Part shown: in pieces, positions 2,795 to 39,372 of the stretch | Position numbering within the stretch: the first letter of the stretch is position 1 | Layout of the letters: the number at the start of each line of letters is the position of its first letter | From: Alistipes sp. | Lineage (GTDB): Bacteria > Bacillota > Clostridia > Oscillospirales > Ruminococcaceae | NCBI GenBank assembly: GCA_023667265.1 | Contig: JAMPAJ010000004.1 | Coordinates: 43,243-107,242, forward strand | Direction of reading: 5' to 3' | DNA length: 64,000 nucleotides | The notes under the pieces: model-generated | The model's database searches: none | Seen by the model: the letters and a program-made list of their open reading frames with translations, nothing else | Told to the model about the DNA's origin: nothing | Program-made: the position numbers and the translations under genes

Positions 2795-2991
2795 GCGACA
2801 CCGGGTTTCAAAAGGGACGGTTGTCCCTTTTGCGAAGTCCAGAGGCAGCGCCTTTGGCGAGGCATGGAGCAGAGCTCCATATCGACCGCAGGTCGATGTT
2901 ATACTTTAGGCGCCCTGCAAGGGGTGAATTAAAAAACAGTCCGGTGGACTGTTTTTTAAGAGGGGACGCTCTGCAAGAGAGAGCGTCCCCT
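2795..2991 (+). repeat. Module P copy A, hairpin array
   Basis: Successive hairpins: P1 2810-2831 (AAAAGGGAC / GTCCCTTTT), P2 2839-2857 (CCAGAGGC / GCCTTTGG, one G-T pair), P3 2864-2880 (ATGGAGC / GCTCCAT), P4 2881-2897 (ATCGACC / GGTCGAT, abutting P3), then a less structured stretch, P6 2931-2957 (AAAAAACAGTCC / GGACTGTTTTTT) and P7 2961-2991 (AGGGGACGCTCT / AGAGCGTCCCCT). Loops are 3-4 nt, except 7 nt in P7. P6 has A- and T-runs on either side of a short stem and would terminate transcription in both directions. Confidence 0.88.
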
Positions 2992-3143
2992 AAAACTTTC
3001 ACAGGAAATTCAAAAAGGTAGAAAGAAATTCTCCCCGAATAAAAGAGGAAGGAAATCATATCGCTCGCGGAATATCTACACCTGCAAAATAAATTAGCGA
3101 GGTACTCGCGGCTACGTGAAACCGCCCGTGGGGGCTGCCCCAC

Positions 3144-3345
3144 AAGGGAACGCCCTCTCTTGCAGGGCGTTCCCTCTTTTGTAACAGTCCACTGGACTGT
3201 TACAAAATTCACCCTTTGCGGAGCGCCTAAAGGCATTATCGACGTTCCGTCGATATGGGACGCTGTCCCATGCCCTGCCAGAGGCGCTGCCTCTGGACTT
3301 CGCCAAAGGGACAACCGTCCCTTTGGAAACCCGGTGTTTTACGCT
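3144..3345 (-). repeat. Module P copy B, hairpin array
   Basis: Same array as copy A in the opposite orientation: P7 3145-3175 (AGGGAACGCCCT / AGGGCGTTCCCT), P6 3177-3207 (14-bp stem TTTTGTAACAGTCC), P4 3238-3254 (ATCGACG / CGTCGAT), P3 3255-3271 (ATGGGAC / GTCCCAT), P2 3278-3296 (CCAGAGGC / GCCTCTGG), P1 3303-3326 (CCAAAGGGAC / GTCCCTTTGG). Relative to copy A the changes in P1, P3, P4, P6 and P7 come in complementary pairs, so base pairing is kept while sequence changes. Confidence 0.88.
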
Positions 3346-3370
3346 TAGATTGTCTGCAATCATGATTTTC

Positions 3371-3457
3371 TCCGCACGCGGCAATATCTGCGCCAGTCGA
3401 TAAATCAGCGAGTTTACTCGCGGCTACGTGAATTGCCCGCGGGGGGCTGCCCCGCTG
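3371..3457 (-). repeat. Module Q copy B2
   Basis: GC-rich module with the GCGGGGCAGCCCC-type hairpin (3438-3455), a CACGTG-like core that has decayed to TACGTG, and the GCGAG...CTCGC-like stem with changed bases. Sister copies lie at 2686-2765, 3063-3142, 31110-31187 and 59690-59770. Confidence 0.7.
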
Positions 3458-3524
3458 GTGATATTTTATCTCAGGTGCGGTAACACAAAAGCACAATATA
3501 TCAGTTAATCAGTATTATTTATCA

Positions 3525-3553
3525 TTGAATTTTTTGTGAACATGATATATAAT
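3525..3553 (+). promoter_or_regulatory. Sigma-A promoter of the pectate lyase gene, with structured leader
   Basis: TTGAAT (3525-3530), a 17-nt spacer and TATAAT (3548-3553). The leader of about 105 nt contains two similar units, GGTCGGGAATGA and GGTCGGGAACGA, each inside a small hairpin (GGGTC/GACCC at 3563-3578; CGGG/CCCG at 3590-3604). These could be a regulator site or mRNA structures. Confidence 0.7.
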
Positions 3554-3663
3554 ATAATCACAGGGTCGGGAATGACCCAAGCGAACGGTCGGGAACGAGT
3601 CCCGGTCATATATCATTATATTTTACCACCGTCATCGTGACGGAAAAATCGGAGGGAAAGAAA

Positions 3664-6600
3664 ATGAAAAATTCTATCATGAAGAAAAGGATCATGGCGA
3701 TCGCCGCTTCTGCAGTTATGAGCGTTTCTGCTGTGACAGGTGCTGCCGGAACTGTTGCCGCTCCCCTGCTCGCAAATATGACAACTTCCATGGCTGCCGA
3801 GGCAAGCGTCAAGATCAACGCAACTGTAGGCTATGCCGAGGGTATGTACGCTACCTGGGGCGCTGTTTCGGGAGCTTCCGGCTACAACGTTTACGTTGAC
3901 GGCGTGCAGATCGACTCCATGCTCATCAGACAGTACAGCGGCTACATGAGAGCCGACGCTATCGGTCTTAAAGCCGGCAGCCACACAATGAAGATCGTCC
4001 CCGTTATCAGCGGCAAGGAGGACAGCTCGAAGGCTGCTTCCGGTACGGCAAGCGTTTACGCCCACGACAGAAGCGGCTACGCTTTCGCTGACGGTCATAT
4101 GCCCGGAGCTTACAAGGCTGACGGTACTCTGAAGGACAACGCTATCGTCGTTTACGTTACAGACGAAAATAAGGACACCGTTACCGCTTCTCTCAACGCC
4201 GAGGGCAAGGGCAACGTCGAGTGCAAGGGAATCCAGAACATCGTTACAGCCTACAAAAAAGGCAAGGAAACGCGTCCTATCTCTATCAGACTTATCGGAA
4301 ACATCTCCGACCCTGCAAATATGCCCAAGGGCGACCTTATGGTGGACACAGTTACCTCCGCAGGCATGACTATCGAGGGCATCGGCAGCGATACTACAGC
4401 TAACGGCTGGGGAATCGTGCTGAAAAACTGCGTTGACGTCGAGGTAAGAAACATCGGCACAATGAACTGCAACAGCGACGAGGGCGACAACATCGGTCTC
4501 CAGCAGGGCGACTCCTACTGCTGGGTGCACAACTGCGACTACTTCTACGGCGACGCAGGCTCTGACGCAGACCAGGTAAAGGGCGACGGCGCGCTTGACA
4601 CAAAGAAGTCCCACCATATCACCCACTCCTACAACCACTTCTACGACAACGGAAAGTGCAATCTCCAGGGCGCAAACAGCTCTGATACGTCGAATTACAT
4701 CACATACCACCACAACTGGTACGACCACTCCGACTCACGTCACCCCAGAGTAAGAGTTGCTACAGTTCACGTTTACAACAACTATTACGACGGCAACGCC
4801 AAGTACGGCATCGGTTCGACTACGGATTCCGATATTTTCGCTGAAAACAACTACTTCCGCAACTGCGCCAAGCCCATGATGATAGCAGGTCAGGGAACGG
4901 ACGCTGCCGGCGAGGGCACATTTTCCGGCGAGGGAGGCGGTATGATAAAGGCCTACGGCAACGTTTTCGTGGGCGGAACATACGTTCCCTACAGCGAAAA
5001 CAGCACGCAGTTCGACTTCTACGACGCTAAGTCCAGAACCGAAGCTGTCCCCTCCTCCGTCAAGGCGGCTAAGGGCGGCGCAGGCTACAACAACTTCGAC
5101 ACTGCAAGCGATTTCTACAGCTATAACCTGGATGCAGCCGAGGACGTTCCCTCTGTCGTTACGGCAAAGGCTGGACGTGTTGACGGCGGCGATTTCAAGT
5201 GGACCTTCGACGCCTCCGAGGACACAAACTACGCTGTAATTCCCGAGCTCAAGGCTGCTCTGGTGGCTTACGACGACGCTATCGTTTCCATCGGCAGCGG
5301 CTTCAAGGACGATGTCTCAAATCCTCCCACAACAACTCCCCAGCAGACAACGCCCCAGACCTCACAGCAGACTACGCCTCAGCAGACGACTCCTGCTTCA
5401 AACTCCAGCGTGACAGGCGGACAGGTACACAACTTCACAGAAAGCGAAATGTCCAGCAGCTTCTACACCATTTCCGGCAACATGAACAGCAAGCCCGCGG
5501 CTATCACCTACAACGGTCTGACTCTTTCCAAGTGCATGAAAATGGAGTCCGCAACAAGCATCACATTCACGGCAGGCTCTTCCGGACTTCTGACTCTTGT
5601 AACAGATTCGGCTTCCAAGAATATCAAAATTGACGGCGACAAGTATGCTACAGATTCAGACGGCACGCTGACTATCGACCTGGGCGCAGGCGCTCACACT
5701 ATCACCAAGGGCGACTCCATGAACCTCTACTATATGTCCTTCGGCGGCGAGGCTGGCACACCTGTTGTCACAAACGCTCCCACAAGCGGCAATACTCCCG
5801 TTGTGACAACTGTTACAGTCACAACTCCTGCCGCACAGGTTCCCTCCGGCGATATCAAGGTCGTTTACGCAGGCGGCTGGAACGAAATGGCTTACCTCGT
5901 ATGCTCCGGCATCAAGGACGCCAACGTAACGGGCGTCTCCTACGCCGGCACGACAAACGGCAAGCTTTCCGGCGAGGACTTTGAATACCTCGTAAGAGAC
6001 GTAAACGAGGGCGTTCGCGTTGATCTTCTCGGTCTGAAGCCCGGCACATACAGCATCACTCTCGAGACTACCGCAGGCAAGATCACTCAGCCCGGCATCG
6101 TAGTCGGCGAGCAGGATCGTTCCGGTTACGCCCACTTCAACTACACCGACGGCGTAGGCGCATACAACGACGACGGTACTCTTAAAGAGGGCGCAAGAAT
6201 TCTCTACATCACAAACGAAAACAAGGACACTGTTTCCATCACCTCCAAGGACGGCACAACGGTAACAGGTATCGGCAATATCCTTAACTCCGCAGGCATG
6301 GACTCCGGAAACGGCAAGACCTCCGGCGGCGGTACGGCTAATACAAACTCCGGCATCATCAAGAAGATAGCTCAGGACGACACTCCCCTGGTCATCAGAA
6401 TTATCGGCAACGTCGAGACTCCCAAGGGCGTTACAGAGTTCGACTCCGCAAACTACGGCGGAACTGTCGGCGACAACGGCGGCATGGCAAGAATGAAGTC
6501 CGGTAAGAACATCACTATCGAGGGCGTGGGCAACGACGCTGTAGTAAACGGCTGGGGCTTCCACTTCATGTGCGAATCCTCCGACCCCGACCTGGGCAAA

Positions 6601-7683
6601 TCCTTCGAGGTAAGAAATATCGCATTCAGAAACGTTCCCGAGGACTGCATCGGCATGGAGGGCGTTCAGGAGGGCTCCGGCGACAGCGCTAAGCTCACTG
6701 CTTCCGTTGAGAGATGCTGGATACACAACTGCGAATTTTACGTTCCCAAGATAGCAAATCCTGCCGAGTCCGACAAGGCTGAGGGCGACGGAGCCTGCGA
6801 CTTCAAGCGCGGTCAGTACTTCACAAACAGCTACTGCTACTACGAGGGCTACCACAAGACAAACCTGGTAGGCGCTTCGGATTCAAATATCCAGTACAAC
6901 ATCACCTTCCACCACAACTACTGGAAAAACTGCGAGTCAAGAGGTCCTCTCGCCCGTCAGGCTAACATTCATATGTACAACAACGTATTCGACGCACAGT
7001 CAAGCTACTGCCAGAACCCCAGAGCAAACGCTTACATCTTCTCCGAGTATAACGCATTTGTAAACGAGTGCAAGAACCCCGGCGTGCTTACCTCCGGCGG
7101 CGTAATCAAGAGCTACAACGACGCGTTCATCAGCCTGAAAAAGGGCGCAAAGGACGAGGCTACAAAGGTTTCCAGCAGAACCGAAAAGGTAAGCAGCTCC
7201 AACAAGTATGCCGGCTTTGAGATGGATTCCAAGCTCTCATACATCCCCTCCGGCGCATACGTTCTCTCCGAAAAGACAGGCGACGCGCTCTACACCGAGC
7301 TTAACTCCGTATTCGAGGAGCTGGGCGGCTGTATGGACAACAAGAAGCTGACGACCTCCGCGCCTGTAACAGAGCCTGCACCCACAACAACAGCTGCACC
7401 CCAGCCTGTCGTTACAACAACTGCCGCTCCCGATCCTGTCACAACCACAGCCGCTCCTGTTGCAAACGTAACACCCGGCGACGCAAACGACGACGGCATA
7501 GTTGATATCGCAGACGCTACACTTCTTCTCCAGTACATCGGAAACAGCGACAAGTACAAGCTTTCAGCAGCAGGACTTGCAAATTCAGACGTAGCAGAGC
7601 CAAAGGGCATCACAGCTCTCGACTCTCTCCAGATACAGATGTACGACGCAAAGATTGTTGACAAGCTTACGGTGATTTCATAA
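3664..7683 (+). CDS. Secreted tandem pectate lyase (PL1-PL1) with C-terminal type-I dockerin
   Basis: A predicted secreted pectin-degrading enzyme of 1339 residues that cleaves polygalacturonate by beta-elimination. Order: signal peptide (residues 1-35), a small beta domain, PL1 domain 1 with the catalytic RxPxxR motif at R359-R364, a Thr/Gln-rich linker (near 555), a beta-sandwich module, a second small beta domain, PL1 domain 2 with RxPxxR at R1093-R1098, a Thr/Pro linker, and a dockerin (1271-1339) starting GDANDDGIVDIADATLLLQ. The dockerin's second calcium loop is degenerate (NSDVAEPKGITALDSLQ). Both lyase domains keep the catalytic arginine, so both may be active. ATG 3664 is chosen because GGAGGG sits 7 nt upstream. 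It is transcribed alone, from its own promoter to a terminator near 7810. The dockerin implies attachment to a scaffoldin not encoded here. Confidence 0.95.
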   Translation: MKNSIMKKRIMAIAASAVMSVSAVTGAAGTVAAPLLANMTTSMAAEASVKINATVGYAEGMYATWGAVSGASGYNVYVDGVQIDSMLIRQYSGYMRADAIGLKAGSHTMKIVPVISGKEDSSKAASGTASVYAHDRSGYAFADGHMPGAYKADGTLKDNAIVVYVTDENKDTVTASLNAEGKGNVECKGIQNIVTAYKKGKETRPISIRLIGNISDPANMPKGDLMVDTVTSAGMTIEGIGSDTTANGWGIVLKNCVDVEVRNIGTMNCNSDEGDNIGLQQGDSYCWVHNCDYFYGDAGSDADQVKGDGALDTKKSHHITHSYNHFYDNGKCNLQGANSSDTSNYITYHHNWYDHSDSRHPRVRVATVHVYNNYYDGNAKYGIGSTTDSDIFAENNYFRNCAKPMMIAGQGTDAAGEGTFSGEGGGMIKAYGNVFVGGTYVPYSENSTQFDFYDAKSRTEAVPSSVKAAKGGAGYNNFDTASDFYSYNLDAAEDVPSVVTAKAGRVDGGDFKWTFDASEDTNYAVIPELKAALVAYDDAIVSIGSGFKDDVSNPPTTTPQQTTPQTSQQTTPQQTTPASNSSVTGGQVHNFTESEMSSSFYTISGNMNSKPAAITYNGLTLSKCMKMESATSITFTAGSSGLLTLVTDSASKNIKIDGDKYATDSDGTLTIDLGAGAHTITKGDSMNLYYMSFGGEAGTPVVTNAPTSGNTPVVTTVTVTTPAAQVPSGDIKVVYAGGWNEMAYLVCSGIKDANVTGVSYAGTTNGKLSGEDFEYLVRDVNEGVRVDLLGLKPGTYSITLETTAGKITQPGIVVGEQDRSGYAHFNYTDGVGAYNDDGTLKEGARILYITNENKDTVSITSKDGTTVTGIGNILNSAGMDSGNGKTSGGGTANTNSGIIKKIAQDDTPLVIRIIGNVETPKGVTEFDSANYGGTVGDNGGMARMKSGKNITIEGVGNDAVVNGWGFHFMCESSDPDLGKSFEVRNIAFRNVPEDCIGMEGVQEGSGDSAKLTASVERCWIHNCEFYVPKIANPAESDKAEGDGACDFKRGQYFTNSYCYYEGYHKTNLVGASDSNIQYNITFHHNYWKNCESRGPLARQANIHMYNNVFDAQSSYCQNPRANAYIFSEYNAFVNECKNPGVLTSGGVIKSYNDAFISLKKGAKDEATKVSSRTEKVSSSNKYAGFEMDSKLSYIPSGAYVLSEKTGDALYTELNSVFEELGGCMDNKKLTTSAPVTEPAPTTTAAPQPVVTTTAAPDPVTTTAAPVANVTPGDANDDGIVDIADATLLLQYIGNSDKYKLSAAGLANSDVAEPKGITALDSLQIQMYDAKIVDKLTVIS

Positions 7684-7790
7684 GACAGCTACAAGACCCT
7701 TTCATATAAGACAGATTCCCCGGCTTCACCGCCGGGAGGATCTATGTCCTGAAAAAGCTTGTTTCTCAAAATATAATGATATAAGAAGAG

Positions 7791-7816
7791 CGGCTCCCAT
7801 TTCGGGAGTCGTTTTT
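7791..7816 (+). terminator. Intrinsic terminator of the pectate lyase gene
   Basis: Stem CGGCTCCC / GGGAGTCG (one G-T pair) with a 5-nt loop, followed by five T. A second GC-rich hairpin (CCCGGC / GCCGGG, 7718-7736) lies upstream. Confidence 0.75.
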
Positions 7817-7840
7817 CTGCGGGGCGGAAAGACGCCCCAC

Positions 7841-9163: not shown

Positions 9164-9173
9164 AGATATCCTC

Positions 9174-9872
9174 CTAAAAATTGTTGATAAGAAATTTGTA
9201 TTTTTCCGGGTCGAAGCCGTCGCTGAGTTTAGGCTTGGCAACGTTGTCCTGCTTCATCCACCTCGCCACAGTTCCCCAGAAATCGGCGATATGTGAAATG
9301 CCCTTAGCGGCCATCCAGTCCTGAACACGCTTCTGATAATCCAGAACATTTTCCCTGCCGTAATCGCTGATAAGCCTATCCTGAGCCGTTTTATCAGCCT
9401 CGGGAGAGGGAGAGCTTTTTTCAGCCTGCACTGGGGAGGCGGGCGCCCCCTTCTCATCCTTCTTGTAATTATTATTATTTATTATATTTATTTCATTGTT
9501 GTCATTCGCCTGTCGCTGCCCTGTCGTTTCCTTGTCATCATCCTGACATCTGTTTGTCGGCAAAATAAAATCATCATAGGAATTTACCGTAACTATGGTA
9601 AATTTTCCGCTTGATGACCTTGTCACGTCTCCGGTTTTCTCCAGGTGCTCGAACGCCGTTCTGATCTGCCGCACGGTGAGGTTCAGCTCGTCAGCCAGCT
9701 TGGTAAGAGAGGCTAACCGCTGCCCTCGGCGGACTGTGATGTCCTGGAACTCCCTCTCCTCAAAATTACAGCTCATAAGCAGGTGCAGGAACAGCCGCAC
9801 GGTATTTCCGTCGCTGTACCAACGCCAGTCCATAAAATTCCTGCCAAGCCGGATATAACCAAAATTCAACAT
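9174..9872 (-). CDS. Winged-helix protein resembling phage replisome organiser / DnaD-like proteins
   Basis: 232 residues. The first 90 or so (YIRLGRNFMDWRWYSDGNT, FLHLLMSCN, ITVRRGQRLASLTKLADEL, LTVRQIRTAFEHLEKTG) look like the winged-helix N-terminal domain common in Firmicute phage and integrative-element replication proteins. A low-complexity linker with Asn runs follows, then a C-terminal helical part (YQKRVQDWMAAKGISHIADFWGTVARWM) that may load helicase as in DnaD. GGAGG lies 7 nt before the ATG. It has no phage genes around it and sits directly upstream of the ThrE-type exporter, so it may be a domesticated or left-over phage gene. Function is inferred only from the N-terminal pattern. 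Confidence 0.8.
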   Translation of the reverse strand: MLNFGYIRLGRNFMDWRWYSDGNTVRLFLHLLMSCNFEEREFQDITVRRGQRLASLTKLADELNLTVRQIRTAFEHLEKTGDVTRSSSGKFTIVTVNSYDDFILPTNRCQDDDKETTGQRQANDNNEINIINNNNYKKDEKGAPASPVQAEKSSPSPEADKTAQDRLISDYGRENVLDYQKRVQDWMAAKGISHIADFWGTVARWMKQDNVAKPKLSDGFDPEKYKFLINNF

Positions 9873-9991
9873 AAATATACCTCCATAGAGAGGGCTGAAT
9901 TTAATGAAGCCCTTCTATAAGAGGCGTATTTTTGGGTGTTTTTCAATGGATACCCGTTGATTATTGAAAAAAGTTTACAAAAATTTTACAT

Positions 9992-22599: not shown

Positions 22600-22735
22600 A
22601 AGGGGACGCTCTCTCTTGCAGAGCGCCTGAAGGCATCATCGACGTTCCGTCGATATGGGACTCTGTCCCAAACCCTGCCAAAGGCGCTGCCTCTGGACTT
22701 CGCAAAAGGGTCATTGCCCCTTTTGAAACCCAATG
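22600..22735 (-). repeat. Module P copy C, internally deleted
   Basis: Contains the outer arm of P7 (22601-22625), then P4 (22638-22654), P3 (22655-22671), P2 (22678-22696) and P1 (22703-22725). P6 and the linker are missing: the P7 right arm (TTGCAGAGCG) fuses to the linker GAGCGCCTGAAGGC, as if recombined at the shared TTGC(A/G)GAGCG sequence. P1 keeps only its outer 8 bp. It lies 33 bp after the M23 gene. Confidence 0.82.
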
Positions 22736-29757: not shown

Positions 29758-29773
29758 CGCAGGAGGTTCAACT

Positions 29774-30856: not shown

Positions 30857-30918
30857 GGCGGCAGTGGGGAGCCCCAAACGCGCGAAAATATTCTGATTAC
30901 TGACAATCTCAACGCGAC

Positions 30919-31109
30919 ACCGGGTTTCAAAAGGGACGGTTGTCCCTTTTGCAGAGTCCAGAGGCAGAGCCTCTGGCAGGGCATGGGACAGAGTCCCATA
31001 TCGACGGAACGTCGATGCAGCCTTTAGGCGCCCTGCAAGGGGTGAATTAAAAAACAGTCCAGTGGACTGTTTTTTAAGAGGGGACGCTCTGCAAGAGAGA
31101 GCGTCCCCT
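30919..31109 (+). repeat. Module P copy D1, hairpin array
   Basis: P1 30928-30951 (CAAAAGGGAC / GTCCCTTTTG), P2 30958-30976 (CCAGAGGC / GCCTCTGG), P3 30983-30999 (ATGGGAC / GTCCCAT), P4 31000-31016 (ATCGACG / CGTCGAT, abutting P3), P6 31049-31075 (AAAAAACAGTCC / GGACTGTTTTTT), P7 31079-31109 (AGGGGACGCTCT / AGAGCGTCCCCT). All six stems are perfect. This is the best-preserved copy in the window. Confidence 0.9.
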
Positions 31110-31187
31110 GCGGGGCAGCCCCCGCTGGCGATTCACGTGACCGCGAGTACCTCGCTGATTTGTTTTTCAGACGTAGATATTCCGCGA
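31110..31187 (+). repeat. Module Q copy D1
   Basis: GCGGGG / CCCCGC hairpin (31110-31125), TCACGTGA palindrome (31133-31140), GCGAG / CTCGC hairpin with loop TAC (31143-31155), and the conserved end CGTAGATATTCCGCG. Confidence 0.8.
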
Positions 31188-31199
31188 GCGATATTTTTT

Positions 31200-31227
31200 C
31201 TCCCCGAATAAAAGGGGAGATTTTTTT
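31200..31227 (+). terminator. Terminator-like hairpin in spacer S
   Basis: CTCCCC / GGGGAG with a short A-rich loop, followed by seven T. The matching S copy at 2992-3062 has the same core but a broken stem (CTCCCC versus GAGG). Confidence 0.6.
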
Positions 31228-31257
31228 CTGCCTTTTTGAATCTGCTGTAAAAGTTTA

Positions 31258-31460
31258 AGGGAACGCCCTCTCTTGCAGGGCGTCCCCTCTTTTGTAACAG
31301 TCCACTGGACTGTTACAAAATTCACCCTTTGCGGAGCGCCTGAAGGCATCATTGACCTGCGGTCAATATGGAGCTCTGCTCCATACCTCGCCAAAGGCTC
31401 TGCCTCTGGACTCTGCCAAAGGGACAACCGTCCCTTTGGAAACCCAATGTCGCGTTAAAA
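31258..31460 (-). repeat. Module P copy D2, inverted hairpin array
   Basis: P7 31258-31288 (one mismatch), P6 31290-31320 (14-bp stem TTTTGTAACAGTCC), P4 31351-31367 (ATTGACC / GGTCAAT), P3 31368-31384 (ATGGAGC / GCTCCAT), P2 31391-31409, P1 31416-31439 (CCAAAGGGAC / GTCCCTTTGG). It differs from its partner D1 by paired changes in P1, P3, P4 and P6. Confidence 0.88.
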
Positions 31461-31526: not shown

Positions 31527-31555
31527 TTGACTTTTCCCGAAAAAAAGTGTATAAT
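31527..31555 (+). promoter_or_regulatory. Sigma-A promoter of the EAL/beta-solenoid gene
   Basis: TTGACT (31527-31532), 17-nt spacer, TATAAT (31550-31555); AAAGGAG lies 6 nt before the ATG at 31625. Confidence 0.8.
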
Positions 31556-31624
31556 AAATTTGTATGAACAATTGATTCCTGACGAATCATAACGATAGAA
31601 ATAACAGTTTTCAAAGGAGTTGCC

Positions 31625-34360
31625 ATGAGTATTTTCAACCTCTCAAAAAATCCTCCGGAATTGAGTCATGACTGGAACGTTTTTCAGCAGTTTATGGGAA
31701 ATATCGGCGCTTTTACCTACATTGCAAAGGAAAAGTCCGCTTACCTCGACGACGCCGCCTGCCGTATGCTCTCCTGCTCCGGCACTAAGCTCAATGAATT
31801 CGAGTTCTTCAACCTGCTGGAGAAGATCTCCAAAATGCCCGTGGAGGGTCAGAAGCACATCTACCGCTTCACCAATAACAACGTGACAAAATACATAAAA
31901 ATGAATATATACGAGAGCAGCGACGAGTGGCTGGGCTTCGTCCAGGACTACACCCGGCAGATCTCGGAAAATCAGGGGAAAAGCTTCGTTGAATACGAGC
32001 CCGTTACCCGTCTGCCCTCCTTCCCCTCCTTCTCCCAGCATATTAAAAAGCTTATCGCCGATGCACAGGAATGCTGCCTTGCCACCGTCTACATCAACGG
32101 CATCGAAAAGCTCGGCTCCTTCCTTACCGTGGATATGACCAACTGCTGTATGGCGTCTGCCGCCGAGGCGCTGAAGGGCTTCGCCTCTGATAACGTCTAT
32201 ATCGGCTGTAAATCGGGATATGAGCTGCTCGTTTTCTTCAAGGACTGCGACAGAATGTTCATTTACAACGTCCTCAACAGCATGGACGAGGCTGTCCAGA
32301 ACTGCACCCTTACCGACGATTTCGGCGAGATCATCGACATTTCCGACAAGAGCAAGCTGAGCCTTTCCATCGGCTGCGCTTCTCACCCTTACGAGGCGAC
32401 GGACTTCAATATGCTTGTCAATTACTCGGAATTTGCCCTCTATGAAGCCAGAACTGACCGACGTCATGTGATAAACTGGTTCTCGGAGGAAAATTACGTC
32501 CGGGAAAAGGACGCCTACAAAAACGCCCAGATATTCAACCGTATGATAATGGAAAATCAGCTTACCTACCATATCCAGCCTATCGTGGAGACGACTACCG
32601 GAAATATCGTCGCCTACGAGGCTCTTATGCGGAGCATCGGCGATGTGCGTATGGAGCCGAAGCAGATACTGGCTATAGCAGATTCCCAGGATTCCCTGTA
32701 CACCGTGGAAAAGCTGACCTACTTCAACACGCTGAAGCTCCTCAGCGAGAATCAGCAGGTTTTCGAGAATAAGAAGCTTTTCATAAATTCAATGGCGGAC
32801 TATCAGCTTACGGAGGAGGACTTCAACGAGCTGTACCTCACCTACGGCGAGCTGCTTGAAAAGGTCGTTATCGAGGTCGTGGAGGACAGTACCTCGACTC
32901 CTGAGGCTATCGAGATTATCAAGAAGCGGCTGAGCTTCACCCACTCCCAGCTTGCTATCGACGACTACGGCACAGGCTACTCCAACACCTCGAATCTGCT
33001 GAAATACCGCCCCGACTACGTAAAGATCGACCACTCCCTCATCACCGACATCCACAACGACCTGAAAAAGCAGCAGCTTGTGACCCAGATAATCGAGTTC
33101 TGCCGGGACAATCAGCTGCAATCCCTGGCGGAGGGCGTGGAGACCTCTCAGGAGCTGAAAACCGTTATACGTCTGGGCGTTGACCTGGTTCAGGGCTATT
33201 ATACGTCGAAGCCGAAGCCCCTGTTCCTGGACAGCATCTCCAAGGAGGTCAAGGACGAGATAATCCGCACCAATCTGGAGATACGACCCTCGGGCACGAA
33301 AAAGGTATATACGGCTCAGAGCGACGCGGAGCTCGACCTTGTAAAGCTTGCTCTGGAGCGCTATACGGACATTCACGTCTACCAGAGCAAGCTGACTATC
33401 GTAGGCGATCCGGATAAGCCGGTGAAAATGAACATCTCCATTATGGACAACCACAGCTGCGAGCTGACTCTGAAAAATGTGAACCTTGTAAGCGGCAACA
33501 GCAAGCCGACTATCACCGTCGGCGAGTACGCGCGGCTCGTGCTGAACGTCGTAAGATCAAACAAGCTGGGCTATGCCGGTATCTATGTGCCCATGGGCTC
33601 GCAGTTCGAGCTTCACGGAAAGGGCAGTCTTACTATCGACTGCTACGCTCCCGACGGCATCGGCATCGGCAACGACTATGACCACGGCTACGGCGATATC
33701 ACCGTGGACATGGAGGGCTCGCTGGAGATAATCTGCAACAGCATGGAGGCTGTCTGCATCGGCGGCGGCTACAACGACGACGATTCCGAGATCAAGCTGC
33801 TTTCTGGCAGGATCTGTATTTATATGTACAGCCACAACGGTCTTGCGGTAGGCAGCTTCAACGGCGACGCTAATATCGAAATAGACGAAAAATGCGACGT
33901 GGATATGGTCGTTTCCGGCATCAGGATAGTGGGTATCGGAAGCTGCAAGGGCATTTCGACCATTGCCAGCTCTGCCAATATAAAAATGTCCTGCACCGGC
34001 GCCCAGGCTGTCGGCATCGGCGTTCTTGAAGAGGGCGAGGGAAGCATCCTCATCCGCAAGGGCAAGATAGACATGAAAATGCGTTCGGCAAAGCAGTCCT
34101 GCATCGGCGCAATGGGCGGCGACGTGAACACCAAGATCATGAACTCCGAAATAACTATTGATTCAGAGGGTGATTTCGCCACAGGTATCGGCGACTCCAC
34201 AGGCGGCGGCAACGTTTTCATCATGGATTCCACGGTGAATATGAAAATGCTTTGCGCAAATCCCGTGGATATCGCCTCGGAAAGCGGAAATGTGCAGCTC
34301 CAGAACGCCACTGTAAATTCGCTGGTGAACAATAAACGCATCGAGCACAGCAGTGATTAA
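31625..34360 (+). CDS. EAL-domain c-di-GMP phosphodiesterase with degenerate GGDEF and C-terminal beta-solenoid-like repeats
   Basis: 911 residues with no signal peptide or membrane helix. Residues 1-110 look PAS-like; 140-290 are a GGDEF fold whose signature has decayed (CKSGYELLVFF). The EAL domain (about 300-560) keeps its key residues: YEALMR (E332), NSM, VIEVVED, IDDYGTGYS (D446-D447), DYVKIDHSL, SLAEGVET and VQGYY, so c-di-GMP hydrolysis is likely. Residues 675-905 hold about eight repeats of 28-30 residues (DGIGIGNDYDHGYGDITVDM, EAVCIGGGYNDDDSEIKL, AVGIGVLEEGEGSILIRKG, FATGIGDSTGGGNVFIMD) that suggest a beta-helix. Such repeats normally belong to extracellular carbohydrate-binding proteins; here they are attached to a cytosolic enzyme. 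The stop overlaps the next gene by 8 nt. Confidence 0.9.
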   Translation: MSIFNLSKNPPELSHDWNVFQQFMGNIGAFTYIAKEKSAYLDDAACRMLSCSGTKLNEFEFFNLLEKISKMPVEGQKHIYRFTNNNVTKYIKMNIYESSDEWLGFVQDYTRQISENQGKSFVEYEPVTRLPSFPSFSQHIKKLIADAQECCLATVYINGIEKLGSFLTVDMTNCCMASAAEALKGFASDNVYIGCKSGYELLVFFKDCDRMFIYNVLNSMDEAVQNCTLTDDFGEIIDISDKSKLSLSIGCASHPYEATDFNMLVNYSEFALYEARTDRRHVINWFSEENYVREKDAYKNAQIFNRMIMENQLTYHIQPIVETTTGNIVAYEALMRSIGDVRMEPKQILAIADSQDSLYTVEKLTYFNTLKLLSENQQVFENKKLFINSMADYQLTEEDFNELYLTYGELLEKVVIEVVEDSTSTPEAIEIIKKRLSFTHSQLAIDDYGTGYSNTSNLLKYRPDYVKIDHSLITDIHNDLKKQQLVTQIIEFCRDNQLQSLAEGVETSQELKTVIRLGVDLVQGYYTSKPKPLFLDSISKEVKDEIIRTNLEIRPSGTKKVYTAQSDAELDLVKLALERYTDIHVYQSKLTIVGDPDKPVKMNISIMDNHSCELTLKNVNLVSGNSKPTITVGEYARLVLNVVRSNKLGYAGIYVPMGSQFELHGKGSLTIDCYAPDGIGIGNDYDHGYGDITVDMEGSLEIICNSMEAVCIGGGYNDDDSEIKLLSGRICIYMYSHNGLAVGSFNGDANIEIDEKCDVDMVVSGIRIVGIGSCKGISTIASSANIKMSCTGAQAVGIGVLEEGEGSILIRKGKIDMKMRSAKQSCIGAMGGDVNTKIMNSEITIDSEGDFATGIGDSTGGGNVFIMDSTVNMKMLCANPVDIASESGNVQLQNATVNSLVNNKRIEHSSD

Positions 34361-35201
34361 GCTGCGGAAGGCGGCGGCAATGTGCTGCGTCCTCGCACTT
34401 TCGGCAGGCTGCGGAAGAGCTGAAAGCTCCGGCGTGACCGGGAATGTCCCGGAGCTTTGGACTGACCTGACGTATTTTTCGGCAGCCACGCCTGTTCAGC
34501 GGCAATTCTACAACGGTTGGAAAGCCCTGGCGAAGGACCCTGTACAGGAGCTTGTCATCTACGACGAGCCGGGAGCTTACAACTCGCTGCTGGTGGACGA
34601 CGCCATGGACGCGCAGCTTATGCTGATGCTCGACGAGCCGGAATATAGCCAGATCCTGCGGTATTACGCGATCTGCTGCACCGACGATTCCGGACGCTTC
34701 GCCATGACAGCCGTCTACGACAGCCGGGAATGCCCGCTGGAGGAAAATATTCGCCGCCGGGATCAGGCTATGGCGGTCATAGAGGAAAAAGCCCGGGAGC
34801 TCGGCACGCTTCCCACGGCTGAGGAAAAGTACCGGGCGGCATACGACTGGCTCGCCTGCACGGAGTACGACTTTTCGGAAAGTCCGCCCGTGTCCGCCCA
34901 CACCATTTACGGCGCGGCAGTCAAGGAGCTTTCCCAGTGCGACGGACTGGCGTACACGTACACCCTTGTCTGCCGGGAAATGGGACTCTCCTGCTATACC
35001 GCGGCAGGAGCTCTCGGGGACTCCGACCACATCTGGAATATAGCGCCCTTTGAGGGCGAATGGCGGCTTATCGACATAACGTCCGGGCAGGACGAGGCGA
35101 TGCGCGGCGATATAGAATATCTTCGCTTTCTCTGCCCCGACATTTACGCCGACGGACGAAAGCCGCTTGATAATATAAAAAACATAGGTTACAATTTTTA
35201 A
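34353..35201 (+). CDS. Transglutaminase-like lipoprotein
   Basis: 282 residues. GTG start at 34353 inside the end of the EAL gene (8-nt overlap). N-terminal signal with lipobox-like LSAGC (Cys20) predicts membrane anchoring outside the cell. The C-terminal half carries the transglutaminase-like Cys-His-Asp set: ELSQCDGLAYTYTLVCREMG (Cys), GDSDHIWNIAPF (His) and WRLIDITSG (Asp), close to bacterial proteins with peptidase or cross-linking activity. Coupling to a c-di-GMP protein suggests a surface-remodelling task, which is inference. ychF follows after 20 nt. Confidence 0.85.
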   Translation: MIKLRKAAAMCCVLALSAGCGRAESSGVTGNVPELWTDLTYFSAATPVQRQFYNGWKALAKDPVQELVIYDEPGAYNSLLVDDAMDAQLMLMLDEPEYSQILRYYAICCTDDSGRFAMTAVYDSRECPLEENIRRRDQAMAVIEEKARELGTLPTAEEKYRAAYDWLACTEYDFSESPPVSAHTIYGAAVKELSQCDGLAYTYTLVCREMGLSCYTAAGALGDSDHIWNIAPFEGEWRLIDITSGQDEAMRGDIEYLRFLCPDIYADGRKPLDNIKNIGYNF

Positions 35202-35221
35202 CAGAAAGCAAGGTAATAAAC

Positions 35222-36316
35222 ATGAAGCTTGGAATGGTAGGTTTACCTAACGTAGGAAAAAGCACTCTTTTTAACGCACTTACAAACGCAGGCGCAGAAT
35301 CGGCGAACTACCCTTTCTGCACTATCGAGAAAAATATCGGTATCGTTTCCGTTCCCGACGAGCGGCTGGACAAGCTGGCTGAAATGTACCAGCCCGACAA
35401 GTTTACCCCGGCAACTCTGGAATTCGTGGACATCGCCGGACTCGTCAAGGGCGCGTCAAAGGGCGAGGGACTGGGCAACAAGTTCCTTGCGGATATTCGT
35501 GAGGTGGACGCTATTGTCCATGTTGTCCGCTGCTTCGAGGACACTAACATCATCCACGTTGACGGCAGCATCAACCCTCTCCGCGACATCGAAACTATCA
35601 ACCTGGAGCTTATCTTCTCCGATATCGAGATAGTGGAGCGGCGCATCGACCGCGCTAAAAAGGCTTCTAAGGGCGATAAGAAATATCTTGCGGAGATCGA
35701 GTTCCTGGAGCGGCTGAAGGAGCATCTCGAAAGCGGAAAAAGCGCAAGAGGCTTCGACTTCACTGACGACGAGCGCGCGCTGATAAAGTCGACTCCCCTG
35801 CTCTCCCAGAAGCCCGTTATCTACGCAGCAAACCTCAGCGAGGCTGATTTTGCCGGAGATATCGAGACAAACGAAAATTACCTGAAGGTCAGGGCTCTTG
35901 CGGAGGAGGAGAACTCCGCCGTGCTGCCTATCTGCGCCCAGACCGAGGCTGAGATCGCCGAAATGGACGAGGAGGACAAGGCTATGTTCCTGGCTGAGCT
36001 GGGACTTGAGGTCTCCGGACTCAACCGTATCATCAAGGAAGGCTACGCTCTGCTCGGACTTATCTCCTACCTCACCGCCGGAAAGCCGGAGGTCCGTGCC
36101 TGGACTATCAAAAAGGGCACAAAAGCTCCCCAGGCTGCCGGAAAGATACATACCGACTTTGAAAAGGGCTTCATTCGTGCAGAGGTTGTCGCCTTCGACG
36201 ACCTTATGGCGTGCGGAACAATGGCTGCCGCTAAGGAAAAGGGGCTGGTTCGTCTCGAGGGCAAGGAGTACGTCATGAACGACGGCGATATCGTACTCTT
36301 CCGCTTCAACGTTTAA
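35222..36316 (+). CDS. ychF: YchF/OLA1 family ribosome-associated NTPase
   Basis: 364 residues, the normal length. GLPNVGKSTLFNAL (G1), DIAGLVKGASKGEGLGNKFL (G3), NLSE in place of NKxD (YAANLSEAD), the coiled-coil insert (DRAKKASKGDKKYLAEIEFL), and a C-terminal TGS domain (VRAWTIKKGTKAPQAAGKIH). YchF prefers ATP over GTP and binds ribosomes. AAGG precedes the ATG. The stop and the next start share one base (TAATG), so the MFS gene is coupled. Confidence 0.95.
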   Translation: MKLGMVGLPNVGKSTLFNALTNAGAESANYPFCTIEKNIGIVSVPDERLDKLAEMYQPDKFTPATLEFVDIAGLVKGASKGEGLGNKFLADIREVDAIVHVVRCFEDTNIIHVDGSINPLRDIETINLELIFSDIEIVERRIDRAKKASKGDKKYLAEIEFLERLKEHLESGKSARGFDFTDDERALIKSTPLLSQKPVIYAANLSEADFAGDIETNENYLKVRALAEEENSAVLPICAQTEAEIAEMDEEDKAMFLAELGLEVSGLNRIIKEGYALLGLISYLTAGKPEVRAWTIKKGTKAPQAAGKIHTDFEKGFIRAEVVAFDDLMACGTMAAAKEKGLVRLEGKEYVMNDGDIVLFRFNV

Positions 36317-37491
36317 TGGCGTCGCTTCTCATTGCACTTATATATCTGGCGTTCATAAGCCTTGGACTGCCGGATTCGCTGCTGGGCTCGGCTCTGCCCT
36401 CCATCCAGGATGAATTATCCATATCCACGTCGGTGATCGGGCTGATCTCCATGGTGATCTCAATGGGAACCATCGTGTCAAGTCTGATGTCGGAGCGGCT
36501 GATAAAACGCTTCGGAACTCCCGGCGTAACAGTCGCCAGCGTCTTTCTGACGGCGGCGGCTCTCTTCGGATTTTCAATTTCCGGAAGCTTTTTAAGCCTC
36601 TGTCTCTGGGCTGTCCCCTACGGTCTCGGCGCAGGCTCTATCGACGCGGCTCTGAACAATTACGTCTCGCTGCACTACAGCTCCCGGCACATGAACTGGC
36701 TGCACTGCTTCTGGGGCGTTGGAACAATAATCAGTCCCTATATAATGAGCGCCGCAATTTCCAGCTCCGGCTGGCACAGCGGTTACAGGTGGATAGCCCT
36801 TGTTCAGTCGGGAATTTTCGTAGTCCTGCTGGTCACACTTCCGGTCTGGCGAATACACAGTGCTCCGGAAAAGCAGGAGATCGGCAGCCGCGAGCCCCTG
36901 GGCATGATCGGCAGCCTGCGGATAAAGGGTGTTCCAAGTCTGCTTCTGGGCTTTTTCGCCTACTGCGCTGCGGAGGCTACGGCAATGCTCTGGTCGGGCA
37001 GCTATCTGCACAGAGTACACGGCTTCACGGAGGAAAGGTCGGCAGCTCTTGCGTCGCTGTTCTTCATCGGAATGACCGCCGGACGTTTTATTTCCGGACT
37101 TGTGTCGTCGAAACTGGGCGACAGAAACATGATACGCCTTGGCTGCGGAGTTGCATTTGCAGGGATCGTAATTCTGCTTATACCTGCAAATGCCGGAATA
37201 CTGCCGATTTCCGGTCTTATTATTGTCGGACTTGGCTGTGCGCCGGTCTATCCGTCCATTATCCACGCGACGCCGGAAAACTTCGGTGAACAGAACTCCC
37301 AGGGAATAATCGGCATCCAGATGGCGAGCGCATACACCGGAACAACGCTTATGCCCACGATTTTCGGAGCTATAGCCCAGCGCGTGAGCCTCAGGCTTAT
37401 GCCCGTATTTATGGCGGTTTTCCTGCTTATGATGATAATTCTCATAGAGAGGACGTTCAGCACGGCTAAGAATAATGTTACCGTGCACTAA
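36316..37491 (+). CDS. Major facilitator superfamily transporter
   Basis: 391 residues with about 12 hydrophobic segments and MFS signatures: a GSALPSIQDEL stretch after helix 1, MSERLIKRFGTPGVT in loop 2-3, GLGAGSIDAALNNY in helix 4, and the central charged loop (HSAPEKQEIGSREP). The fold resembles the fucose/glucose-permease-like clade of Firmicutes, but the substrate is not evident. Translation is coupled to ychF by TAATG. No clear terminator follows; a GTTCACGTGAAC palindrome lies at 37501-37512. Confidence 0.88.
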   Translation: MASLLIALIYLAFISLGLPDSLLGSALPSIQDELSISTSVIGLISMVISMGTIVSSLMSERLIKRFGTPGVTVASVFLTAAALFGFSISGSFLSLCLWAVPYGLGAGSIDAALNNYVSLHYSSRHMNWLHCFWGVGTIISPYIMSAAISSSGWHSGYRWIALVQSGIFVVLLVTLPVWRIHSAPEKQEIGSREPLGMIGSLRIKGVPSLLLGFFAYCAAEATAMLWSGSYLHRVHGFTEERSAALASLFFIGMTAGRFISGLVSSKLGDRNMIRLGCGVAFAGIVILLIPANAGILPISGLIIVGLGCAPVYPSIIHATPENFGEQNSQGIIGIQMASAYTGTTLMPTIFGAIAQRVSLRLMPVFMAVFLLMMIILIERTFSTAKNNVTVH

Positions 37492-37532
37492 CAAAAATAA
37501 GTTCACGTGAACCGATTTTTTATAAAAACCTA

Positions 37533-37561
37533 TTGCAAAATTCAAAAGAATGTGATAAAAT
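37533..37561 (+). promoter_or_regulatory. Sigma-A promoter of nfeD-SPFH
   Basis: TTGCAA (37533-37538), 17-nt spacer, TAAAAT (37556-37561). Confidence 0.6.
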
Positions 37562-37604
37562 ATACTTGTAGGGATACTACAATAAATTATAAGGGGGATT
37601 TTTT

Positions 37605-38039
37605 ATGGACGTTATTGTCTGGGCGGCTCTTGTTGTTATGTTCGTCATCGTCGAGGTCGCGACAGTTCAGTTGGTGTCGATATGGCTTGCGGCAGGCGCA
37701 ATGGTGACTATGTTCTTCTGCTGCTTCACCGACGTGGGACTGTTGGGTCAGCTGATAATTTTCGCCGTAACCTCGGTCATCGGTATCGCTGTCACTGTTC
37801 CTTTCCTCAGAAAAAGGCTAAACAGAGGCTATACCGCCACAAATTCCGAGCTCGAGCTCGGCAGGTCGGCTGTCGTTATCGAGACGATTGATCCCGACAG
37901 AAACAGCGGCAGAGTTACTCTTAATGGGGTCAATTGGGGAGCTCTTTCCGCTGACGGAAGCTTAATTCCGCAGGACAGCATTGTCACAGTCACAGAAGTA
38001 AAGGGCACTAAGCTCGTCGTTAAACCCAGGGCGTGTTGA
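37605..38039 (+). CDS. NfeD-like membrane protein
   Basis: 144 residues: two or three N-terminal membrane helices (VIVWAALVVMFVIVEVATVQL, LIIFAVTSVIGIAVTVPFL) and a C-terminal OB-fold (LGRSAVVIETIDPDRNSGRVTLNGVNW). This is the short NfeD type that works with SPFH proteins in membrane microdomains. A G-rich ribosome site (GGGGG) precedes the ATG. The SPFH gene follows after 36 nt. Confidence 0.92.
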   Translation: MDVIVWAALVVMFVIVEVATVQLVSIWLAAGAMVTMFFCCFTDVGLLGQLIIFAVTSVIGIAVTVPFLRKRLNRGYTATNSELELGRSAVVIETIDPDRNSGRVTLNGVNWGALSADGSLIPQDSIVTVTEVKGTKLVVKPRAC

Positions 38040-38075
38040 CACATTGCTCAGCACCCTGAATAATTGGAGGTAATT

Positions 38076-39053
38076 ATGACAAATTTCATCGGCATTGTAG
38101 TTTTATGCTTACTCATTTTTCTTATCATTCTTTTCATCAGATGCTTCAGGATCGTTCCACAGGCGCACGTTTTCGTAATCGAGCATCTCGGCTCGTTCAA
38201 GTGCGAATGGCAGACCGGAATCCACTTCCTCGTTCCCTTTATCCAGCGGATCGCCGGAAAGGTGTCGCTGAAGGAAAAGGTCGTGGACTTCAAGCCGCAG
38301 CCCGTTATCACCAAGGATAACGTAACTATGCAGATAGACACAGTCGTGTTCTACCAGGTAACTGACGCAAAGCAGTACATCTACGGCGTTGAGCGTCCTC
38401 TTGCCGCTATCGAGAACCTTTCCGCAACAACGCTCCGTAACATCATCGGCGAAATGGAGCTTGACGCTACCCTCACATCCCGCGATATCATCAACACAAA
38501 GATCACTTCTATCCTCGACCAGGCGACCGATCGCTGGGGTATCAAGGTGAATCGCGTTGAGCTGAAGAATATCCTGCCGCCCCGTGAGATACAGGACGCT
38601 ATGGAGAAGCAGATGAAGGCTGAGCGTGAGAGACGTGAGAAGATACTCCAGGCTGAGGGTGACAAGAAGTCGCAGATCCTCGTTGCCGAGGGTGAAAAGG
38701 AATCCCAGATACTCCGCGCAGAGGCTAAAAAGGAGGCGCAGATCCTGGAGGCTGAGGCTGAAAAGCAGGCTATGATACTCCGTGCCGACGCTGTAAGAGA
38801 GCAGAAAATCCTGGAGGCTACCGGTGAGGCGCAGGCTATCGAGCTTGTGCAGCAGGCTTACGCCGACAGCCTTGTAAAGCTGACCCAGGCTGACCCGTCG
38901 GAGAAGGTCATCAAGATCAAATCTCTGGAGGCATTCCAGAAAGCTGCTGACGGCAAGGCTACAAAAATCATCATTCCCAGCGAAATACAGGGACTTGCAG
39001 GTCTTGCAGGAAGTCTCAAGGGCATCGTTGAGAACGACAAGCCTGTGCAGTAA
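38076..39053 (+). CDS. SPFH/band-7 (stomatin/paraslipin-like) protein
   Basis: 325 residues. An N-terminal membrane anchor (IVVLCLLIFLIILFIRCF), the SPFH domain (QAHVFVIEHLGSFKCEWQTGIHF ... ENLSATTLRNIIGEMELDATL), then a long Glu/Ala/Lys coiled coil with repeated ILEAEAEKQA units, and a C-terminal flexible end. It forms oligomeric scaffolds in the membrane, and pairing with NfeD is the usual arrangement. ATG 38076 has GGAGG (38066-38070); the TTG at 38064 overlaps that site and was rejected. Confidence 0.94.
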   Translation: MTNFIGIVVLCLLIFLIILFIRCFRIVPQAHVFVIEHLGSFKCEWQTGIHFLVPFIQRIAGKVSLKEKVVDFKPQPVITKDNVTMQIDTVVFYQVTDAKQYIYGVERPLAAIENLSATTLRNIIGEMELDATLTSRDIINTKITSILDQATDRWGIKVNRVELKNILPPREIQDAMEKQMKAERERREKILQAEGDKKSQILVAEGEKESQILRAEAKKEAQILEAEAEKQAMILRADAVREQKILEATGEAQAIELVQQAYADSLVKLTQADPSEKVIKIKSLEAFQKAADGKATKIIIPSEIQGLAGLAGSLKGIVENDKPVQ

Positions 39054-39060
39054 AAAAATC

Positions 39061-39098
39061 AAAAATCCCACGGTTTCTTCGGATTCCGTGGGATTTTT
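39061..39098. terminator. Bidirectional terminator after the SPFH gene
   Basis: AAAAATCCCACGG and CCGTGGGATTTTT form a perfect 13-bp stem around a 12-nt loop, with A- and T-runs at either edge. Confidence 0.85.
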
Positions 39099-39123
39099 CT
39101 TAATTAAATTTTTATATTTCTTT

Positions 39124-39372
39124 CTGGGTTTTTGAATCTCCTGGAGTGGTTTCAAGGGGACGCTCTCTCTTGCAGAGCGTCCCCTCTCAAAAAACAGTCC
39201 ACTGGACTGTTTTTTGATTCACCCCTTGCAGGGCGCCTAAAGTATATCATCGACGTTCCGTCGATATGGGACTCTGTCCCATACCCTGCCAGAGGCTCTG
39301 CCTCTGGACTCTGCAAAAGGGACATTGTCCCTTTTGAAACCCAATGTTGCGTTAAGATTGTCAGTAATCGCA
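39124..39372 (-). repeat. Module P copy E with partial S
   Basis: Between convergent operons. P7 39155-39185, P6 39189-39215, P4 39249-39265, P3 39266-39282, P2 39289-39307 (perfect, loop TCT), P1 39314-39336 (CAAAAGGGAC / GTCCCTTTTG). Part of spacer S lies before P7 (39124-39150). The far edge on the minus strand (GATTACTGACAATCTTAACGC) is conserved with other copies and contains the GH105 stop codon TGA. Confidence 0.87.

What the first reader, a model, noticed from the sequence alone, without database searches (positions are those of the whole stretch)
2795..39372. Family of multi-hairpin elements whose stems covary between copies
Copies A (2795-2991), B (3144-3345), C (22600-22735), D1 (30919-31109), D2 (31258-31460) and E (39124-39372) each contain the same ordered hairpins P1, P2, P3, P4, (P6) and P7 with 3-4 nt loops (7 nt in P7). 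Differences are paired: P3 is ATGGAGC/GCTCCAT in A and D2 but ATGGGAC/GTCCCAT in B, D1 and E; P4 is ATCGACC/GGTCGAT, ATCGACG/CGTCGAT or ATTGACC/GGTCAAT; P7 is AGGGGACGCTCT or AGGGAACGCCCT with matching partner arms; P6 has 12- or 14-bp versions. Random drift would break stems. This points to a selected RNA or single-stranded DNA fold that I do not recognise.
Basis: seen in the sequence. Interest (0 to 1): 0.88.

Follow-up and report, generated by a model that had tools for sequence, protein, structure and literature searches.

The report
Hairpin repeats with proposed triple helix
Gut and rumen bacteria related to Ruminococcus carry many copies of a short non-coding DNA repeat that folds into a row of hairpins, and linked changes across species suggest that one part wraps around a hairpin as a triple helix, which laboratory work could now test.

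Summary
The six copies belong to an interspersed repeat with about 51 places in this genome and matches in 75 of 125 genomes of the genus (Ruminococcus, inferred). No Rfam family reaches its gathering score in the window. Across species the stems covary strongly: 28 of 51 pairs show two-sided changes and 99.7% of cells pair. Inside this genome the variants are haplotypes reshuffled between copies, so the six-copy argument alone is weak.

New here is a three-way covariation. A segment, P5, matches the 5' arm of hairpin P7 base for base in antiparallel register and changes together with both arms: 120 of 136 cores agree at all four variable columns. A second genus shows it with exceptions. The simplest physical reading is an intramolecular triple helix with P5 as third strand. 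G-U outnumbers A-C among imperfect pairs, so one strand seems to fold alone. Orientation to genes is neutral (34 sense, 27 antisense), copies avoid divergent promoters, and sites differ between species, as for BOX, REP and PIT repeats.

Best explanation: a non-autonomous interspersed repeat whose single-stranded form, probably DNA, folds into hairpins plus a small triplex. How it moves is unknown; RNA versus DNA is unresolved; the triplex is inferred, not shown.

The parts
2795..2991 (+). copy A, full length, TG subtype (P5 CCTGCAAGGGG, P7 AGGGGACGCTCT)
2809..2832 (+). P1 hairpin of copy A
2839..2857 (+). P2 hairpin of copy A
2864..2880 (+). P3 hairpin of copy A (GGAGC/GCTCC type)
2881..2897 (+). 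P4 hairpin of copy A (absent in many relatives)
2914..2924 (+). P5: proposed third strand, compact columns 11-21
2929..2959 (+). P6 hairpin between third strand and P7
2961..2991 (+). P7 hairpin; 5' arm 2961-2972, 3' arm 2980-2991; proposed duplex of the triple helix
2992..3144 (.). spacer of inverted pair A/B, containing tail Z and hairpin-rich module X
3145..3340 (-). copy B, full length, CA subtype (P5 TCCGCAAAGGG at 3212-3222, P7 at 3145-3175)
22600..22735 (-). copy C, internally deleted between P5 and P7; absent at the syntenic site of relative G018
30914..31109 (+). copy D1, TG subtype (P5 31032-31042, P6 31047-31077, P7 31079-31109)
31110..31257 (.). spacer of pair D1/D2, in the opposite orientation to the A/B spacer relative to the two subtypes
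31258..31453 (-). copy D2, P5 of CA type, P7 with chimeric 5' arm (P7 31258-31288)
39155..39350 (-). copy E, single, TG subtype (P7 39155-39185)

Best explanation
These are copies of a non-autonomous, intergenic interspersed repeat of Ruminococcus and relatives, comparable in lifestyle to BOX, REP/BIME and PIT repeats. The strand read 5' to 3' from P1 to P7 folds when single-stranded into a row of hairpins. In its most conserved part P5 lies in the groove of hairpin P7 as the third strand of a short intrastrand triplex, with P6 as a bulky hairpin in the connecting loop. Columns 17-21 read as purine-motif triads (G.G-C, A.A-T; third strand antiparallel to the purine arm) and columns 12-13 as pyrimidine-motif triads (C.G-C, T.A-T; third strand parallel to the purine arm). 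Columns 14-16 would be the strand-switch junction. Two copies of different subtype often form one tail-to-tail composite, about 545 bp in this genome. Shown: the repeat, its spread, the stem covariation, the three-way register, the G-U over A-C excess, orientation neutrality and presence/absence between species. Inferred: that three-way covariation means a triplex; that the folded molecule is DNA rather than RNA, because the purine motif is reported not to form in RNA; and that the fold serves the repeat's own spread by an enzyme or replication-linked route not identified here.
For: Stem covariation: 28 of 51 pairs with two-sided changes, 163 such cells against 35.2 in shuffles, 99.7% of cells paired. 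Three-way signal: among P5 x P7-5'-arm antidiagonals the register i+j=80 scores 1.64 and the next 0.18; direct registers reach 0.59 at most, through single cells. For five of six P5 columns tested (12, 13, 15, 18, 19) the in-register cell is the highest of its row; the register ranks 1 of 720 pairings, with 75 co-changes against a mean of 23.5. 120 of 136 cores agree at columns 12, 13, 18 and 19 together, in nine haplotypes (recounted by hand). Outside this genome and G018 P5 equals the P7 5' arm in 80/80, 77/80, 76/80 and 79/80 sequences at those columns, each with two states. Another genus, g14, gives 32/35, 32/35 and 31/35 at columns 13, 18, 19. Single-strand asymmetry: G-U 37 to A-C 8, 23 to 0. 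Orientation in tandem contexts: 34 sense, 27 antisense, p 0.44; convergent 33 and divergent 3 against background 39 and 64. Presence/absence: copy C, a G018-only copy, five more cross-species sites (four viewed). [quoted passage not shown]
Against: Only four P5 columns (12, 13, 18, 19), and weakly column 15, carry the evidence; columns 17, 20 and 21 hardly vary. Column 15 follows P7 by complement (C with G-C, A with T-A), which is not a canonical triad. In my phylogeny-aware null (40 simulated alignments) 13-71 and 13-83 have E about 0, 18-65 and 18-88 about 0.2, but 12-72 0.9, 19-64 about 15 and 15-69 about 39 (uncompacted numbering); some true stem pairs fare no better there (72-82 0.5, 64-89 3.2). 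Column 11 varies without a partner, and column 16 stays A while P7 changes. In G018 alone (19 copies) the register leads only narrowly, 0.324 to 0.246. In g14 only 3 of 6 copies with A at P5 column 19 have A in P7, and up to 7 of the 35 copies were already in the set of 136. In family f24, judged by eye, some members fit and others break it. The triplex would be short, and C+.G-C needs protonation. Absence at a site could be loss. No mobilising enzyme, target duplication or inverted termini were found.
Confidence: 0.5

Rival explanations
1. Structured RNA acting in cis as a 3'-UTR element: terminator or mRNA 3'-end protector, with the P5-P7 triple in RNA.
For: 32 of 46 own copies have a same-strand gene ending upstream, 24 of these within 60 nt. 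G-U tolerance fits RNA. In window 2500-3650 a simple scan finds 8 terminator-like sites against 1.5 in shuffles, among them P7 of B, P4 of A and the P5 region of B, none at P6. In L200 a terminator-like hairpin stands where L187 has the element.
Against: In tandem contexts 34 sense and 27 antisense, so no orientation preference. The 32 of 46 is inflated, because between convergent genes either orientation counts as same-strand. The purine-motif half is reported not to form in RNA (PMC4666352).
Confidence: 0.22
2. Free-standing small RNA genes, or an RNA partner of a nuclease (omega/reRNA-like).
For: Multi-hairpin, conserved, intergenic.
Against: No Rfam family at gathering score in the window and none near its gathering score in 2500-3600; no PF07282 match in this genome or in G018, an 87% complete MAG; no gene family recurs beside copies in more than 5 genomes within the flanks held, and those were not family-searched; most 5' flanks are not alike, though a subset shares an upstream motif.
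Confidence: 0.06
3. No selection on a fold: hairpins are kept perfect by mutation, through template switching or gene conversion within palindromes.
For: Two copies have an inverted P7 loop, spacers flip between subtypes, and haplotypes reassort in the genome.
Against: Template switching should not favour G-U over A-C (37:8 and 23:0), and cannot make the mirror-image P5-P7 identity, which is neither direct nor inverted repetition; the direct register at offset 56 has signal only at column 12, where both registers coincide.
Confidence: 0.1
4. Non-autonomous derivative of a known insertion sequence (Y1/IS200-IS605, RAYT-REP or DDE MITE).
For: Copy number, intergenic location, presence/absence between species.
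Against: No PF01797 match in this genome or in G018; 7 of 12 high-copy and 5 of 12 zero-match genomes have one. By eye no inverted termini or target duplication. Orientation neutral in tandem contexts. DDE families were not searched.
Confidence: 0.12

Closest known systems
PIT/BoxC intrastrand triplex motif (TM_ECO, ITxF; PMC4666352)
   Same: Repeated DNA whose one strand can fold a 5' third strand onto a following hairpin; many copies; inverted-repeat pairs occur; no correlation with gene orientation is reported there.
   Different: Other hosts and layout; here the first loop holds a whole hairpin (P6), whereas the ITxF search allows loops of 1-6 nt; here purine and pyrimidine motifs would be combined in one helix; here there is three-way covariation across species. 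The stem covaria- does not occur in that paper's main text. Sequences were not compared.
BOX/RUP/SPRITE repeats of Streptococcus pneumoniae (PMC3049150)
   Same: Folding, intergenic, enriched between convergent genes, variable between genomes, BOX modular; considered parasitic by the authors.
   Different: Other hosts; sequences not compared here; no triplex mentioned in the abstract and the one section read.
REP/BIME with RAYT (PMC2817692, search listing only)
   Same: Palindromic units in alternating or inverted orientation.
   Different: Units here are about 195 nt with several hairpins; no Y1-type transposase match in this genome or in G018.

Membership tests
Intrastrand triplex motif (PIT/TM, ITxF definition) | third strand 5' of a hairpin duplex on the same strand (class I or IV order) | tested here: met
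   by sequence only: P5 precedes P7 and maps antiparallel to its 5' arm in register i+j=80
Intrastrand triplex motif (PIT/TM, ITxF definition) | stems of 6-15 nt with at most one mismatch and loops of 1-6 nt | tested here: not met
   5 + 2 canonical triads around 3 other positions; the first loop is about 36 nt and contains P6 (definition)
Intrastrand triplex motif (PIT/TM, ITxF definition) | forms a triplex in vitro | not testable with these tools
   needs CD, NMR or probing
REP/BIME with RAYT | encoded Y1 transposase (RAYT) in the genome | tested here: not met
   no PF01797 match in G000 (96.3% complete) or G018 (87%)
REP/BIME with RAYT | 20-40 nt palindromic units | tested here: not met
   about 195-nt multi-hairpin unit
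BOX elements | boxA-boxB-boxC modules (recalled) | not tested
   BOX sequences were not compared
MITE | terminal inverted repeats and target-site duplication (recalled) | tested here: inconclusive
   none seen by eye in flanks; empty sites only from diverged species
Rfam RNA families (4227 models) | match at gathering score | tested here: not met
   0 matches in the window
cis-acting 3'-UTR RNA | preferred sense orientation to the upstream gene | tested here: not met
   34 sense, 27 antisense among 61 single copies in tandem contexts, p 0.44
TnpB/IscB guide RNA | nuclease gene in the genome | tested here: not met
   no PF07282 match in G000 or G018; only this domain was searched

The most novel reading that the evidence does not exclude
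A dispersed bacterial repeat family in which evolution has preserved a strand-switching intrastrand triple helix in single-stranded DNA. Third strand and both hairpin arms co-evolve under the canonical Hoogsteen code, and composite copies are built from two different subtypes, perhaps so that each folds on itself rather than on its partner. It would be comparative evidence that a DNA triplex is selected in bacteria.
Probability: 0.35. Interest if true: 0.88.

Novelty: new variant of a known kind. Interest (0 to 1): 0.64.

Why it matters
Whether intrastrand DNA triplexes form and matter in bacterial cells is open: the PIT work showed the fold in vitro, but its in vivo footprinting did not support stable formation (PMC4666352). 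A family with many natural, co-varying versions of third strand and duplex provides a ready test set, because matched and mismatched combinations can be compared directly. It would also explain a repeat at which contigs of a Ruminococcus metagenome assembly end.

Tried and rejected
Rfam scans of the window and of 2500-3600 at E up to 5 (5 matches, all far below gathering scores) gave no usable family. Y1 transposase, TnpB zinc-ribbon domain (over the cut-off in 0 of 12 high-copy and 5 of 12 zero-match genomes) and reverse transcriptase (10 of 12 and 7 of 12) do not track the repeat. Zero-match means no match or, for G084, G077, G026, G025 and G079, which one search did not list, no match; G072 had one match. 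A search for recurrent neighbour genes, in flanks of mostly 1.5 kb, gave one large cluster (89 ORFs, 15 genomes) whose example shown runs over the element itself, and otherwise families in at most 5 genomes, not annotated. A local P5 hairpin from RNAalifold was set aside, because P5-P7 identity explains the changes better. A P5-P7 direct repeat was rejected. Literature searches showed no paper describing this repeat in the listings I saw; only open PMC papers are held. Of PMC4666352 I read two of ten parts of the text (abstract, introduction, part of the methods), the first of two parts of the discussion and term passages; of PMC3049150 the abstract and one results section; of PMC2267715 the abstract; all others as search listings. 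Target-site duplications were looked for by eye only.
Full report
OBSERVATION. A, B, D1, D2 and E are full-length (about 195 nt); C is deleted between P5 and P7 and lacks P6. Copy A folds far better than shuffles as RNA (z -7.7), and its reverse strand as DNA (z -10.5). One DNA query found 55 matching places, fragments included, in the window's own genome (2.57 Mb, 45 contigs); together I count about 51 separate copies by hand, some truncated.

SPREAD. The DNA of copy A matches 60 of 100 genomes of the genus. A covariance model of the conserved P5-P6-P7 core, R1, matches 75 of 125 genomes of the genus and 17 of 295 of the order, this genome and one congener included; the others are two further genera of the family (g14, g21), family f24 and four single weak matches in other families. 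Matches per genome are capped, so copy numbers are lower bounds. The genus Ruminococcus for the window is inferred from this. Four contig lengths identify relative G018 as MAG RGIG9104. One viral contig carries a copy at its end.

STEMS. On 33 sequences from 24 genomes (10 of them from this genome) RNAalifold finds P1, P2, P3, P6 and P7, plus a small local P5 hairpin that I set aside (P4 is absent from many relatives). Counting 51 pairs of these five helices: 99.7% of cells pair, 28 pairs have two-sided changes (shuffles 12.2 +- 2.0), 163 such cells (35.2 +- 7.0), covariation score 0.307 (0.113); sliding the partner by 1-3 columns gives at most 8 such pairs. Sequences are related, so shuffles are not probabilities. 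Imperfect pairs are 23 G-U, 0 A-C and 5 other, and 37, 8 and 24 in P6 and P7 of 136 cores. A double-stranded palindrome, or mutation alone, has no evident reason to prefer G-U of one strand, so I read this as selection on that strand as single-stranded RNA or DNA. The cells are not independent events.

WITHIN THE GENOME. In 41 own copies P1, P3, P4 and P7 types reassort, while P3 goes with its flanking AGGG or GAGG in 39 of 39 readable copies. I read this as gene conversion among copies.

THREE-WAY COVARIATION. I pooled 176 model hits, kept 162 of 84-90 nt and 136 unique ones. The strongest non-stem signals join P5 to P7. In compact numbering P5 columns 12, 13, 18 and 19 equal P7-5'-arm columns 68, 67, 62 and 61; sums are always 80, that is antiparallel and base-identical, hence parallel and complementary to the 3' arm. 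120 of 136 cores agree at all four columns, in nine haplotypes; 16 do not (recounted by hand). Among P5 x P7-5'-arm antidiagonals this register scores 1.64 and the next 0.18; direct registers reach 0.59 at most. The register ranks first of 720 pairings of six columns, and its cell is the highest of the row for five of the six (not column 11). On a tree built without P5 and P7 there are 75 in-register co-changes against a mean of 23.5 for all pairings (recombination inflates event counts, but for both alike). Outside this genome and G018 identity is 80/80, 77/80, 76/80 and 79/80, with two states at each column; in G018 alone (19) the register leads narrowly. In g14 identity is 32/35, 32/35 and 31/35 at columns 13, 18 and 19; one row there was misparsed (L302) and counts against at column 13, only 3 of 6 copies with A at column 19 match, and up to 7 copies were already among the 136. 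g21 (15 copies) hardly varies; 2 of 52 hits could not be parsed. Columns 14-16 are not identical in this way. Against: column 11 varies alone, column 16 does not follow, column 15 follows by complement, and several single pairs are not significant in my phylogenetic null. In f24 the mirror likeness is visible in some members and broken in others, by eye only.

READING. P5, P7-5' and P7-3' follow each other on one strand like the strands of a class I or class IV intrastrand triplex (classes as described in PMC4666352). With purines in the 5' arm (columns 59-63) the third strand carries the same purine, antiparallel: G.G-C and A.A-T. With purines in the 3' arm (columns 78-79) it carries the pyrimidine, parallel: C.G-C and T.A-T. 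Both are the canonical codes, and both need this one orientation. I know of no pairing or protein model that predicts mirror identity. [quoted passage not shown] isolated G.G-C or A.A-U triples do occur in RNA, for example in tRNA (recalled), so RNA is not excluded.

CONTEXT. Of 176 hits, 48 lacked a usable gene on one side (44 at an edge, 4 far) and were dropped; 31 belong to close pairs. Among the remaining 97 single copies, 33 lie between convergent genes, 3 between divergent and 61 between tandem genes; the background of 240 element-free gaps in loci of at least 7 kb, not matched by species, is 39, 64 and 137. In tandem contexts 34 are sense and 27 antisense, p 0.44. Genes were called crudely, and a few loci are probably the same place fetched twice. 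The pattern is that of tolerated parasitic repeats, as argued for BOX and RUP (PMC3049150).

COMPOSITES. Of 23 neighbouring core pairs closer than 400 nt, 22 are plus-then-minus, that is tail to tail; the other (L207) is a weak match of 39 bits beside a full one. The 22 include three that are probably one place fetched under two names, two with a weak second core, and one from the same MAG as G018. The 8 own pairs with both cores, the 5 G018 pairs (one partner cut short) and the 2 g14 pairs all join two different P7 sequences; for 8 of 8 own pairs chance is about 0.004 if subtypes pair at random, with type frequencies entered by hand. This was noticed after the fact. Relative to the subtypes the spacer lies one way in five own pairs (A/B, L010, L012, L016, L027) and the other way in D1/D2 and L013. 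L013 also has an inverted P7 loop and D2 a chimeric P7 arm, as expected for inversion by recombination inside P7.

MOVEMENT. Copy C is missing at the syntenic site of G018. A G018 copy is missing in this genome, as far as its one comparable flank shows. Five further cross-species sites show element against no element: L187/L200, L042/L010, L176/L247, L020/L174 and L145/L288, the first four viewed. From the same list I set aside the L109 site, because the other genome holds a remnant, and L023/L161, not examined. Intergenic DNA is too diverged to give exact ends. No enzyme could be tied to the repeat.

VERDICT. A real, widespread repeat family that I could not find named; ordinary in lifestyle, unusual in carrying comparative evidence for a triple helix. 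The triplex and its DNA nature are inferences that simple biophysics can test.

Noticed in passing
window 2686-2790, 3341-3460 and inside the spacers 2992-3144 and 31110-31257: Another hairpin-rich module (GCGGGG.GCCCCCGC..GCGAGTACCTCGC..) repeats around and between the elements, as in a mosaic of repeats.
   Followed up: partly
L109 (G018 C31) against own C11 about 128 kb and 419 kb: The two flanks of an element pair in G018 map to two distant own loci that both lie next to element remnants: a rearrangement through the repeat, or a chimeric MAG contig.
   Followed up: partly
L187 2090-2460 against L200 150-300: Where one genome has the element a related genome has a plain terminator-like hairpin after the same gene.
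   Followed up: no
own genus P1 against g14 P1 (L262, L292 and others): The string TTC-AAAAGGG is shared, but its pairing partner lies 3' of it in one genus and 5' of it in the other, as if the hairpin had been swapped.
   Followed up: no
window 2808-3314 (-) and many loci: Open frames run across the elements and could be annotated as small hypothetical proteins; a cluster of 89 ORFs whose example shown does so spans 15 genomes.
   Followed up: partly
G018 contigs C75, C86, C50, C1, C16 and others: Contigs of this metagenome assembly often end inside or next to the element.
   Followed up: no
L066, L068, L069, L281: P3 is replaced by a different long hairpin (TCG...CGA) at the same place in some species.
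   Followed up: no
L281: The only viral-collection hit has the element at the very end of a 23.8 kb contig.
   Followed up: no
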